From Nitrosospira sp. (GTDB lineage Bacteria > Pseudomonadota > Gammaproteobacteria > Burkholderiales > Nitrosomonadaceae), in contig JACDSH010000043.1 in assembly GCA_013450215.1 (NCBI GenBank), positions 1 through 40,288 on the forward strand: DNA of 40,288 nucleotides, read 5' to 3'. Below the pieces are notes generated by a model. That model was not told where the DNA came from. It saw nothing but the letters and a program-made list of their open reading frames with translations, and made no database searches. A program made the position numbers and the translations under genes. This document shows positions 30,615-35,938 of this stretch, piece after piece. The first letter of the stretch is position 1, and each line of letters begins with the position of its first letter.

Positions 30615-30644
30615 TTGTCTTGACCCCTTCTGCTGGAGTATAGT
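30615..30644 (+). promoter_or_regulatory. Candidate promoter of the glycine-cleavage operon
   Basis: TTGTCT (30615-30620) and TATAGT (30639-30644) are 18 bases apart. Transcription would start near 30651, just ahead of the riboswitch at 30667, which fits the expected architecture. A TTGACC at 30620 overlaps it but is too close to the -10 box to use. Confidence 0.4.
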
Positions 30645-30666
30645 TACCACTCTGCCATATACATCC

Positions 30667-30864
30667 AAGCGGAAGAGCGCGCCGGTTTCTGCGGCGCCGC
30701 CGAAGGCGCAACCCCCCGGAATCGCTCAGGCATAGATCAGGTCAGCCCTGATCCCTAAAAACCGCTTGCGACAGGCATTCTGGAGAGCGCTTGGCATTTA
30801 GTCAGGCCACCGAAGGGGCACACGGAACAATGTTCTGTAATCTCTCAGGTAAAAAGGACAGAGG
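30667..30864 (+). promoter_or_regulatory. Tandem glycine riboswitch upstream of gcvT
   Basis: Two glycine aptamers lie in series. Aptamer 1 (30667-30767) has P1 AAGCGG/CCGCTT, an inner helix GAGCG (30675-30679)/CGCTC (30723-30727) and the conserved core GCCGCCGAAGGCGC. Aptamer 2 (30778-30864) has GAGAG/CTCTC and GCCACCGAAGGGGC, then the canonical CAGGTAAAAAGGACAGAG. Position before gcvT-gcvH and the ligand agree: glycine should switch on its own breakdown. Aptamer 1 is unusual in carrying an extra hairpin where aptamer 2 has AAAAAGGAC. Confidence 0.93.
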
Positions 30865-30865
30865 G

Positions 30866-30897
30866 GTGAGGTCATGTGACATGGCTTCACTTTTTTT
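30866..30897 (+). terminator. Riboswitch expression-platform terminator
   Basis: GTGAGGTCATG (30866-30876) pairs over a three-base loop with CATGGCTTCAC (30880-30890), an eleven-pair stem with two wobble pairs, followed by seven T residues. It begins right after the P1 strand of aptamer 2, so ligand binding can plausibly decide whether it forms. This indicates control by transcription termination ahead of gcvT. Confidence 0.85.
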
Positions 30898-30916: not shown

Positions 30917-32002
30917 GTGCTGAAAACAACGCCTCTTAACCAGACCCACCGAGATCAGAATGCCAAGATGGTCGACTTTGGCGGTTGGGATATGCCGCTG
31001 CATTATGGCTCGCAACTTGATGAGCACCACAAGGTGCGGAGTGATGCCGGTATGTTTGACGTGTCGCATATGCTGGCAGTAGATATCAAGGGCGATAGCG
31101 CTCGCCCTTTCCTGCGTCAATTGCTTGCCAATAACGTGGACAAGTTGACTCAATCAGGTAAAGCTCTCTACTCCTGCATGCTGAGCCCAGAAGGCGGAGT
31201 GATTGATGACCTGATTACCTATTACCTGACCGAGTCTTGGTTCCGGATTGTAGTGAATGCCGGTACTGCTGAAAAGGATATCGCATGGATACAGGCACGG
31301 CGTGATGATCTTGCCCCTGACTTGGAGATCACCCCTCGCCGTGATTTGGCTATGATTGCGGTGCAGGGGCCTAATGCTCGCGCCAAGGTCTGGCAAGTCA
31401 TTGCGGGCTCTCAAGCAGCGACAGAAGACTTGAAACTGTTCCAGGCGGTCACGTACGGTCAATATTTTATCGCGCGAACTGGCTACACTGGCGAGGACGG
31501 TTTTGAGATCCTGCTGCCTGCCGCTGATGCCCCCAGTTTTTGGAATGCGCTCTGTGATGCTGGTGTGGCCCCTGCTGGACTGGGAGCACGTGATACCTTG
31601 AGACTTGAGGCCGGCATGAACCTCTACGGCCAGGATATGGATGAGACCACCAATCCACTCGAGTCTGGATTGGCCTGGACGGTCGACTTGAAGAGCGAAC
31701 GAGACTTCATCGGCAAGCAGACTCTTCTAGAAAATCCAGCAAGACAGCAGTTAATCGGCCTCTTGCTGCTGGACCGAGGCGTGTTGCGTAGCCACCAAAA
31801 GATCGTCACGCAGTATGATAATAAAGAGGGTGAGATTACCAGCGGCGGATTCTCGCCCACACTCAATCTATCCATTGCACTGGCACGCTTACCGTCAGAG
31901 GTATCCCCTGGAGACGAGGTACAGGTAGTGGTTCGCGATAAGATGCTAAGAGCGAAAGTAGTGAAATACCCATTTGTGCGAAACGGCAAGAGCTTAGTCT
32001 AA
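30917..32002 (+). CDS. gcvT: Glycine cleavage system T protein (aminomethyltransferase)
   Basis: GcvT transfers the methylene group from the lipoyl-bound intermediate to tetrahydrofolate. This 361-residue protein has the family segments [58 protein letters not shown] and a C-terminal TSGGFSPTL. The start is GTG at 30917, with AGGA nine bases upstream. It is the first gene after the riboswitch. Confidence 0.97.
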
Positions 32003-32039: not shown

Positions 32040-32429
32040 ATGGATATCCCAACCAACCTAAAATACACCAAGTCCCACGAGTGGGTGAGACTTGAGGACG
32101 ACGGCACTGCAACAATCGGCATTACCCAACATGCCCAGGAACTGCTGGGAGATATGGTATTTGCAGAAATCCCACCGGTGGGACGCAATCTCAAACAGGG
32201 GGAAGAGTGTGCCGTAGTGGAGTCTGTTAAGGCCGCTGCTGATGTGTATGCACCCATCTCGGGTGAAGTGACCGCAGTCAATACCGAACTTGAGTCTGCG
32301 CCTGAAAAAATAAATCAGGATGCCTATGCGGCTTGGCTCTTCAAAGTTAAGCCAACCAACACCTCCGATCTGAGTGGCCTAATGGATGCCGGAAGCTACC
32401 AGAAGGTACTTGAGAGCGAAGCACATTGA
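32040..32429 (+). CDS. gcvH: Glycine cleavage system H protein
   Basis: GcvH is the lipoyl carrier of the glycine cleavage complex. In this 129-residue protein the lipoylated residue is Lys64 in [32 protein letters not shown] near the N terminus is typical. GGAG precedes the ATG. It lies 37 bases after gcvT. Confidence 0.97.
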
Positions 32430-32531: not shown

Positions 32532-33881
32532 ATGCCGTTCATTCCACATACTGAAGAAGACATCAGCACGATGCTTGCAAGCATCGGCGCAAACACGATT
32601 GAAGATCTATTCGATGAGATCCCCCTTGCCCTGAAGAGCGGGAGTCTCAAAGCCCTGCCTGGTCTGAGCGAGATGGAAATCTCACGTCTGATGCAGGATC
32701 GGGCAGAGGTGGATGGACGGTATCTCAACTTCATCGGTGCGGGCGCTTACGAACACCATATCCCCTCCGCGGTGTGGCAGATTACTACCCGGGGCGAGTT
32801 CTACTCCTCCTATACCCCTTACCAAGCTGAGGCAAGCCAGGGAACACTTCAACTGCTCTACGAATACCAGACCATGATGGCCTCACTAACTGGCATGGAT
32901 GTATCCAATGCCAGTATGTATGACGGCGCTTCTGCCCTTGCTGAAGCGGCATTGATGGCGGTACGTTCACACAAATCCTCTCGCCGCATACTGATACCCA
33001 CATCCTTGCATCCGATTTACCGGCGGGTGGTACGTGCCATTGTGAAGAACCAGGGTATCGAAGTTATAGAGATCCCCTACAATTTAGAGTGTGGTCACAC
33101 CCTGGTGGAGAGCCTCGCACCCTATGCTGGTCAAGATATTGCCGCCTTGGTCATCCCCCAACCAAATTTCTTTGGTGTGCTCGAACCGGTGGATGCCCTG
33201 ACAGACTGGGCACATGCCAATAGCGCGCTCGCCATTGGGGTGGTTAATCCCATGTCCCTAGCACTACTCACCCCTCCCGGCGAATGGGGCAGCACCGGCG
33301 CAGATGTGGCGGTGGGTGAGGGTCAGCCACTGGGAATACCACTCTCCAGTGGTGGCCCCTACTTTGGATTTATGGCCTGTAAGCAAGCCCTAATCCGTCA
33401 GATGCCGGGGCGTATTATTGGCCGTACGACCGACCTGAATGGCAATCCCGGGTTCGTCCTCACGCTACAGGCGCGTGAGCAGCATATCCGTCGCTCCAAG
33501 GCCACATCCAATATTTGTACCAACCAGGGTCTGATGGTCACTGCCGCCACCATCTACATGTCCTTACTGGGCCCGGAGGGTCTGAGACGGGTGGCCACCC
33601 AGTCCCACGCCAATACCTTATCACTGGTCGAACAACTGGAAACCTTGAAAGGGGTAAAAAGAATTTTTAGTGGAGACCTGTTCCATGAGACGGTAGTGAC
33701 ACTACCCGCACCGGTTGCGGGCGTACTTAAAACGCTTAAAAATCACGGGGTATTGGCTGGATTAGATTTAAGTGAGCATTACCCAGAGCTCGGCAATGCG
33801 CTACTGGTATGCGCAACCGAAACAAAAATAGCAAGTGACCTGGAAAAGTATGCATCACATCTGGCCCAAGCATTGAGTTAA
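32532..33881 (+). CDS. gcvPA: Glycine dehydrogenase (decarboxylating) subunit 1
   Basis: This is the alpha subunit of the two-chain P protein, 449 residues. [34 protein letters not shown] and [21 protein letters not shown] are characteristic. The PLP lysine is on the partner subunit GcvPB at 34487. An unrelated peroxidase gene stands between the two subunits. Confidence 0.97.
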
Positions 33882-33952: not shown

Positions 33953-34447
33953 ATGGTCACTCTTGCAGGCAACCCCATTAGAGTTGAGGGCACCTTCCCG
34001 AAAGTTGGTGATAAGGCAGCTTCATTCTCGCTGGTAGGTAAGGATCTGAAGGATGTGACACTGACAGACTTTACTAGCAAGAAGAAAGTCTTGAATATTG
34101 TGCCAAGCTTGGACACGCCGGTCTGTGCTATCTCAACTCGTAAATTTAATGAGAAGGCCAGCAGCATGGATAATGCAGTTGTACTGATCATCTCAGCCGA
34201 TCTGCCATTTGCAATGGGCCGATTCTGTGATGCGGAGGGACTGGATAAGGTGGTGACACTCTCGACCATGAGAGGCGGCGAGTTTATGAAAAATTACGGC
34301 GTCGCGATCACCGACGGACCATTATCCGGTATCACTGCGCGTGCAGTGGTGATTCTGGATGAGAACAACACCGTGATCTATGCCGAACTAGTACCAGAAA
34401 TAAAAGATGAACCCAACTATGATGCAGCCCTGGCTGCATTGAAATAA
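33953..34447 (+). CDS. tpx: Thiol peroxidase (Tpx-type peroxiredoxin)
   Basis: This 164-residue atypical two-Cys peroxiredoxin reduces hydroperoxides with thioredoxin. The peroxidatic Cys58 lies in [16 protein letters not shown] and the resolving Cys92 in MGRFCDAEG, matching Cys61/Cys95 of E. coli Tpx. It has a strong AAGGAGAG ribosome-binding site. It sits between gcvPA and gcvPB on the same strand, with 71- and 39-base gaps, so it is probably read with the glycine-cleavage genes. Confidence 0.97.
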
Positions 34448-34486: not shown

Positions 34487-35938
34487 ATGCTGATATTCGA
34501 ACACTCACGCCCCGGGCGACGCAACTACTCACAGGCTCCGACCATTGCTGCGGAAGTTAAAAATATTCCAGCGAAGATGCTGCGAAAAATACCGCCTCTA
34601 TTACCAGAAGTCTCTGAAATGGATACGGTCCGTCATTTCACCAGACTGTCACAATTAAACTTTTCAATCGACACACATTTCTACCCGCTGGGTTCTTGCA
34701 CCATGAAATACAACCCACGTGCGTGTAACTCACTGGCCATGCTGCCTCAATTTCTGGCGCGGCACCCCCTAGCTCCGGAAGATACCGGACAAGGTTTTCT
34801 GGCGTGTATGTACGAGTTGCAAGAAATACTCAAGGATGTAACTGGCATGTCTGGGGTGAGCCTCACGCCGATGGCCGGCGCACAAGGGGAACTGGTCGGT
34901 GTGGCGATGATTCGTGCCTACCATGAGTCTCGTGGAGATTTTGCCCGTACCGAGATTATCGTCCCCGATGCAGCTCACGGGACTAATCCAGCCACGGCGG
35001 TGATGTGTGGTTATACCGTGGTAGAGATTCCTACTGGCAAAGAGGGCGATGTCGACATGGACGCGCTGAAGGCTGCAGTAGGGCCAAAAACAGCCGGATT
35101 AATGCTTACCAACCCATCCACGCTCGGTGTATTCGAGAAGAATATTGCCGAGATGAGCAAGATCGTTCATCAGGCCGGTGGACTACTCTACTATGACGGC
35201 GCAAACCTGAACGCGATTCTTGGTAAGGTAAAACCGGGGGATATGGGCTTTGATGTGATTCATATCAATCTGCATAAAACATTCTCAACCCCCCACGGCG
35301 GCGGCGGCCCAGGATCTGCCCCGATTGGAGTTGCTGAGCGCTTATTACCCTTCATGCCGGTACCGATTGTGACGCTTGAAGAGGGAAAGTATCGTTGGCT
35401 GACGGAGAAAGAGATCCCCCTGTCCATCGGCAGACTTTCAGCTCATATGGGTAACGCCGGTGTACTGTTGCGGGCTTATATTTATATCCGTCTACTCGGT
35501 GCCGAGGGGATGTACCGAGTGTCAGAGTTCGCAACGCTCAATGCCAACTACTTAATGGCAGAATTGAGCAAGGCCGGATTTGAAATTGCCTACCCAACTC
35601 GCCGTGCCAGTCATGAATTCATCGTTACACTTAAAGATCTCAAGGATAAGACCGGCGTGACGGCGATGAATGTTGCTAAACGTCTGTTAGACAAGGGTTA
35701 CCATGCCCCAACCACCTACTTCCCGATGCTCGTACCAGAATGTCTGCTGATCGAGCCGGCTGAGACCGAGTCTAAGCAAACCCTCGATGCCTTTGTCTCA
35801 TCCATGAAGGAGATCCTAGCCGAAGCGTATACCGACCCAGAGATGCTTAAAGCTGCGCCGCATAATACACCGGTTCGTAAAATGGATGATGTAAAGGCTG
35901 CACGGGAACCGGACCTAACTTGGAAGCAGTCGCCCTGA
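34487..35938 (+). CDS. gcvPB: Glycine dehydrogenase (decarboxylating) subunit 2
   Basis: This is the beta subunit of the two-chain P protein, 483 residues. The PLP-binding Lys264 is in [34 protein letters not shown] and [16 protein letters not shown] are family signatures. Together with GcvPA it decarboxylates glycine and loads aminomethyl onto GcvH. No GcvL is present in this window. Confidence 0.97.

What the first reader, a model, noticed from the sequence alone, without database searches (positions are those of the whole stretch)
30667..30767. First glycine aptamer carries an extra hairpin in place of the usual AAAAGGAC strand
Aptamer 1 has a perfect P1 and core, but between CAGGC and the 3' P1 strand it holds GATCAGG (30735-30741) and CCTGATC (30747-30753), a seven-pair stem with a five-base loop. 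Aptamer 2 keeps the canonical AGGTAAAAAGGACAG. Aptamer 1 may be a structural variant, a scaffold only, or ligand-blind.
Basis: partly seen in the sequence, partly recalled or inferred. Interest (0 to 1): 0.55.

Follow-up and report, generated by a model that had tools for sequence, protein, structure and literature searches.

The report
Known optional hairpin in glycine riboswitch
The extra hairpin in this glycine-sensing RNA is real and conserved in a family of ammonia-oxidising bacteria, but it is an optional side arm already known from the cholera bacterium's version of the same RNA, and the glycine pocket next to it looks intact.

Summary
[quoted passage not shown] It is conserved: 54 leaders of the same family (Nitrosomonadaceae, inferred) give 50 distinct aptamer 1 sequences, in which 85% of the stem's cells pair, with 20 two-sided changes against 8 in shuffles (0 of 500). 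The position is that of P4, the optional fourth helix of aptamer I in Vibrio cholerae, where aptamer I holds glycine. So it is a new taxonomic occurrence of a known peripheral helix. "Ligand-blind" is not supported: the three G-C pairs of the pocket stand in 50 of 50 sequences and the bulged U in 52 of 54 leaders. The C-tract of aptamer 1 could form the known P5 pseudoknot with the G-tract at the terminator base. Unlike V. cholerae, GGA before the 3' P1 strand is lost, but some leaders without P4 share that. One Nitrosomonas carries a repeated foldback element in P4. Glycine binding was not tested.

The parts
30615..30644 (+). promoter-like TTGTCT-18-TATAGT
   Evidence: consensus match only; a TATAGT-type box is seen at the same place in most leaders printed (by eye)
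30653..30656 (+). leader strand of P0 (UGCC), partner GGCA 30774-30777 in the linker
   Evidence: read; in G033 and G035 it is UGCU with AGCA, a two-sided change (read); P0/kink-turn is a known part of tandem glycine riboswitches
30666..30768 (+). aptamer 1 (P1 30666-30672 with 30762-30768)
   Evidence: P1 94.6% of cells paired, 4 of 7 pairs with two-sided changes
30679..30697 (+). aptamer 1 P2
   Evidence: 92.9% of cells paired, 3 of 5 pairs with two-sided changes
30699..30731 (+). aptamer 1 P3/P3a/P3b with the glycine pocket; P3a 30706-30708 with 30723-30725 (three G-C pairs), bulged U 30722
   Evidence: P3/P3a 99.8% of cells paired, 5 of 8 pairs never vary; U in 52 of 54
30714..30717 (+). 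CCCC of the P3b loop, 5' partner of the proposed P5 pseudoknot
   Evidence: sequence; C-rich tract in 54 of 54 family leaders; P5 described in PMC13104608 passages
30732..30761 (+). J3/1 of aptamer 1 (30 nt; about 7-10 nt in the other loci read)
30735..30753 (+). extra hairpin = P4 (7 pairs, loop UCAGC)
30770..30871 (+). aptamer 2, RF00504, 53.3 bits
30861..30897 (+). terminator-like hairpin (30861-30876 with 30880-30895, -18.5 kcal/mol) and T run 30891-30897; its GGGG 30863-30866 is the 3' partner of P5
   Evidence: fold; the pattern scan listed no terminator here
30917..32002 (+). gcvT; then gcvH 32040-32429, gcvPA 32532-33881, thiol peroxidase 33953-34447, gcvPB 34487-35938
   Evidence: ORFs; NCBIfam above curated cut-offs

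Best explanation
Aptamer 1 is an ordinary, probably glycine-binding first aptamer of a gcvT tandem ON riboswitch that carries the optional peripheral helix P4 in J3/1. P4 projects from the junction away from the pocket and bridges the stretch where about eight single-stranded bases usually run. Glycine binding closes both P1 helices and the P5 pseudoknot (aptamer 1 C-tract with the G-tract after aptamer 2), which takes the G-tract away from the base of the intrinsic terminator and lets gcvT be transcribed. Shown here: the hairpin, its conservation, its position, pocket and P1 conservation, the overlap of G-tract and terminator hairpin. Inferred: glycine binding, P5 formation, direction of the switch, and that P4 is a passive spacer or stabiliser.
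For: Two-sided changes in 4 of 7 P4 pairs, 20 cells. V. cholerae aptamer I is a 4-way junction with P4, glycine is modelled in its pocket, and P4 is in 13% of glycine riboswitches (PMC12060979); the construct printed there has its hairpin between CAGG and GAGGAC-P1, i.e. in J3/1 (that stretch folds at -12.3). Pocket: three G-C pairs in 50 of 50, U bulge in 52 of 54, matching the ON-switch signature cited in PMC13104608. RF00504 above cut-off for aptamer 1 in 39 of 54 leaders. P4 loop and stem sequence drift, and long inserts sit in P4 of two further Nitrosomonas loci with aptamer 2 letters following, printed in full for L170 and only their start for L155; this fits a peripheral role.
Against: V. 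cholerae keeps GGA-C after P4; here it is mostly RAA-C, so the junction is not identical. Window aptamer 1 is below Rfam's cut-off. G050 lacks a P4 hairpin and G031 has only a weak one. The MFE of isolated aptamer 1 (-46.2) beats the native fold (-37.2) and does not contain P2/P3. Two of five covariation measures are unexceptional and the +1 slide rivals the true register on two. No binding or expression data.
Confidence: 0.83

Rival explanations
1. Aptamer 1 is a scaffold: it dimerises with aptamer 2 but has lost glycine binding, and P4 marks its decay.
For: RF00504 misses window aptamer 1; GGA of J3/1 is gone; G031 and G050, the two leaders with U to C at the bulge, are also the two with weak or no P4; decay of the whole leader does occur in reduced-genome relatives.
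Against: Pocket pairs present in 50 of 50, bulged U in 52 of 54; RF00504 recovers aptamer 1 in 39 of 54; in B. subtilis gcvT aptamer 1 binding matters most (passages).
Confidence: 0.1
2. The altered J3/1 (P4 plus RAA-C) is a functional innovation that retunes glycine affinity or dimerisation in ammonia oxidisers.
For: A long J3/1 is in 54 of 54 leaders from four genera of the family and in 20 of 20 family loci, but in 0 of 49 resolved leaders of other families (33 of 82 unresolved) and 0 of 98 readable other loci.
Against: GG loss also occurs without P4 (L004, L026, L109, L156); stem and loop sequence drift.
Confidence: 0.12
3. The inverted repeat is a chance or mobile-element remnant with no structural role.
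For: Mobile or foldback DNA does sit in P4 of two Nitrosomonas loci.
Against: Conservation with compensatory changes across genera.
Confidence: 0.03

Closest known systems
P4 of aptamer I, Vibrio cholerae tandem glycine riboswitch (PMC12060979)
   Same: Hairpin in J3/1 of aptamer 1, between the P3 3' strand and the P1 3' strand; peripheral
   Different: V. cholerae J3/1 is longer (about 41 nt as printed) and keeps GGA before the P1 C; here GGA has become mostly RAA
RF00504 glycine riboswitch aptamer, tandem, upstream of gcvT
   Same: P1, P2, P3/P3a pocket, bulged U, tandem with aptamer 2, possible P0 leader-linker pairing, C-tract/G-tract
   Different: J3/1 AAAAGGA replaced by P4 in aptamer 1
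RF03166 glycine-GGAnGA
   Same: Window aptamer 1 happens to read GGAAGA at J1/2
   Different: 13.0 bits against a cut-off of 110; no match at E<=10 in the whole genome
Ghost aptamer of singlet glycine riboswitches (PMC6944388, PMC13104608)
   Same: Would sit beside a binding aptamer as a scaffold
   Different: A ghost aptamer is a short hairpin without the pocket; here the pocket is conserved

Membership tests
Tandem glycine riboswitch (aptamer 1) | P1 closing helix | tested here: met
   7 pairs in window; 94.6% of cells paired in 50 sequences
Tandem glycine riboswitch (aptamer 1) | Pocket: P3a G-C pairs and bulged U | tested here: met
   Three G-C pairs 50 of 50; U in 52 of 54, C in G031 and G050
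Tandem glycine riboswitch (aptamer 1) | Rfam RF00504 gathering score | tested here: inconclusive
   Window aptamer 1 below; 39 of 54 homologous leaders above, in L033 with the 5' half of the hairpin used as P1 strand
Tandem glycine riboswitch (aptamer 1) | Consensus J3/1 AAAAGGA (a consensus element, not universal) | tested here: not met
   30-nt J3/1 ending AAAAA before CCGC; V. cholerae aptamer I also departs here
Tandem glycine riboswitch (aptamer 1) | Second aptamer downstream and gcv genes | tested here: met
Tandem glycine riboswitch (aptamer 1) | Glycine binding | not testable with these tools
   needs in-line probing or ITC
P4 helix of aptamer I | Hairpin between P3 and P1 3' strands | tested here: met
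   compare
P4 helix of aptamer I | Conserved pairing | tested here: met
   84.8% paired, 0 of 500 shuffles reach the two-sided cell count; two of five measures unexceptional
P4 helix of aptamer I | GGA-C retained 3' of P4 as in V. cholerae | tested here: not met
   mostly RAA-C in the family (alignment)
P4 helix of aptamer I | Four-way junction in three dimensions | not testable with these tools
   needs cryo-EM or SAXS
RF03166 glycine-GGAnGA | Gathering score 110 | tested here: not met
   13.0 bits; none in genome at E<=10
Ghost aptamer | No pocket | tested here: not met
   pocket conserved

The most novel reading that the evidence does not exclude
In Nitrosomonadaceae P4 together with the GGA to RAA change forms a lineage-specific junction that shifts the load of glycine sensing between the two aptamers, and P4 serves as an open docking site in which new RNA (even a repeated foldback element) can be inserted without breaking the switch.
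Probability: 0.13. Interest if true: 0.45.

Novelty: new member of a known kind. Interest (0 to 1): 0.2.

Why it matters
It suggests that an Rfam miss of aptamer 1 can come from a peripheral P4 rather than from decay, so that apparent glycine "singlets" in ammonia oxidisers (15 of 54 leaders have aptamer 1 under the cut-off) are in fact tandems. It also offers natural insertions in P4 and a family in which intact and decayed leaders can be compared.

Tried and rejected
Rejected: RF03166 glycine-GGAnGA membership; ghost aptamer; chance repeat. Dead ends: two Salinivibrio gcvT regions fetched to look for a Vibrionaceae P4 had no glycine riboswitch; the terminator pattern scan found none, in my reading because the stem's G-U pairs run into the T run, so the hairpin was folded directly; scripts for J3/1 in other families were unreliable at first (in one search P1 was placed wrongly in several rows, which I read by eye), and the last resolved 49 of 82. 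In one search the script placed P1 wrongly in some rows; one search replaces it except for G044. Torgerson 2020, Huang 2010, Ruff 2014 and Butler 2011 are not held and were used only as quoted by PMC13104608 and PMC12060979. A search for papers with both 'glycine riboswitch' and 'Nitrosomonas' gave 0, in the held open library only.

Papers: PMC12060979 outline, Results, RNA preparation, figure legends, first part of references; PMC13104608, PMC5666159, PMC4495719, PMC12452182 and PMC8991567 passages; PMC6944388 outline and Introduction; all others search listings only or recalled.

Full report
What is there. [quoted passage not shown] gene names by NCBIfam above cut-off). Rfam reports only aptamer 2 (53.3 bits); aptamer 1 does not reach the cut-off.

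Relatives. The window's genome (1.6 Mb) belongs to a family whose named members found by pattern are Nitrosomonas, Nitrosospira, 'Nitrosovibrio sp. Nv4' and 'Nitrosomonadaceae bacterium' records. A search of 101 genomes with RF00504 held 61 of this family: 54 with a match, 7 without (G004, G007, G011, G017, G020, G029, G032). The 54 leaders (7, 22, 22 and 3 in four genera, window included) all have a long J3/1 in aptamer 1 (21-31 nt in the segments; G044 was cut there). They give 50 distinct aptamer 1 sequences (duplicates G006, G047, G053, G058 dropped), aligned as A1.

Covariation. On A1 the seven P4 pairs have 84.8% of cells paired (shuffled 81.7, 1 of 500 as high), 20 cells with two-sided changes (shuffled 8.0, 0 of 500) and covariation score 0.171 (2 of 500). 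Two other measures are not exceptional (54 and 62 of 500). Slid registers pair 34-51% of cells; the +1 slide has 5 pairs with two-sided change against 4 and a score of 0.176, but 7 such cells against 20. The clearest case is the sixth pair: A-U in 18, G-C in 13, G-U in 6, not paired in 11. In the Nitrosomonas group the lower stem has an internal loop (second pair a gap, third mostly U-U), so the helix is kept but not its details. A hairpin of four or more pairs is in 44 of 46 distinct segments; G050 has none, G031 a weak one (G044 counted). Single-segment z-scores average -1.29.

What it is. PMC12060979 reports that V. cholerae aptamer I is a four-way junction with a P4 helix, with glycine in its pocket, and that P4 occurs in 13% of glycine riboswitches, citing Torgerson 2020. 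The construct printed there has its hairpin between CAGG (P3) and GAGGAC before the P1 strand; that stretch folds at -12.3. The window hairpin is in the same place. Loci of other families read here lack it: 49 of 49 resolved tandem leaders, out of 82 loci of which 33 were not resolved, have a J3/1 of at most about 10 nt, mostly CAAAAGGA. Of the 119 stretches, 20 are from this family by title, contig length or letters (14 read, 6) and all 20 have the long form; of the other 99, 98 have the short form and one is cut by a contig end (by eye). Both samples favour canonical-looking loci.

Is aptamer 1 blind? The three G-C pairs of P3a are present in 50 of 50 sequences, P3/P3a as a whole pairs in 99.8% of cells, and the bulged U is kept in 52 of 54 leaders. 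PMC13104608, quoting Torgerson, gives three G-C pairs in aptamer 1 as a mark of ON switches and describes a P5 pseudoknot between the P3b C-tract and a G-tract after aptamer 2 in 66% of aminomethyltransferase riboswitches. Here the loop CCCC 30714-30717 faces GGGG 30863-30866; the script read a C-rich tract in 54 and a GGGG or GGGGG tract in 50 of 54 leaders (in 4 its G-tract pattern failed). That G-tract is also in the base of the terminator-like stem 30861-30895 (-18.5), so P5 or P1 of aptamer 2 would compete with it. In B. subtilis the gcvT riboswitch also acts through a terminator and depends most on aptamer 1. RF00504 scores aptamer 1 above its cut-off in 39 of 54 family leaders, in L033 by taking the 5' half of P4 for the P1 strand: I take the miss in the window as a limit of the model.

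What differs. V. cholerae keeps GGA before the P1 C; this family has mostly RAA. Four leaders without P4 also lack GG there (L004, L026, L109, L156), so the change does not depend on P4. The penultimate P1 pair is G-C in 26, A-U in 6, G-U in 3 and not a standard pair (A with C, by eye) in 15 of 50.

Tolerance of P4. L170 (Nitrosomonas sp. OFTM37 record) has a 176-nt foldback insert in P4 that matches about 40 places in its genome, itself included (my merging of 69 match rows on both strands), hence a MITE-like repeat; L155 (Nitrosomonas sp. HPC101) has a 142-nt foldback insert at the P4 loop, found once in its genome. The start of aptamer 2 follows in both.

Verdict. A known optional helix in a family for which one search of the open library found no paper that names both the riboswitch and Nitrosomonas; of low to moderate interest. 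The mechanism is inferred from anatomy and from related switches; no function was measured.

Noticed in passing
L170 6494-6669 (locus + strand; the riboswitch is on its - strand): A repeated 176-nt foldback element (about 40 places in that Nitrosomonas genome) has inserted into P4 of aptamer 1.
   Followed up: partly
L155 4035-4176: A 142-nt foldback insert, single copy in its genome, in the P4 loop of Nitrosomonas sp. HPC101.
   Followed up: partly
L284, L285, L286 (upstream of gcvT): Relatives of genus g4 without an RF00504 match keep gcvT and a terminator-like hairpin, but their tandem riboswitch looks decayed: G017 and G029 look like a fused remnant, G032 has lost the aptamer 1 pocket while P4-like pairing (AUCAA/UUGAU) remains. 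G011 (L287) could not be placed by my script; G020 was not examined.
   Followed up: partly
G031 and G050 leaders (L056, L074): The only two of 54 leaders with the aptamer 1 bulged U changed to C are also the two with weak or absent P4.
   Followed up: no
30653-30656 with 30774-30777: P0 leader-linker pairing, with a two-sided change (UGCU/AGCA) in G033 and G035 (read).
   Followed up: no
L035 (G005): Aptamer 2 of G005 reads AATGTGGAGAG where the window has ATTCTGGAGAG at P1, and was not listed by RF00504.
   Followed up: no
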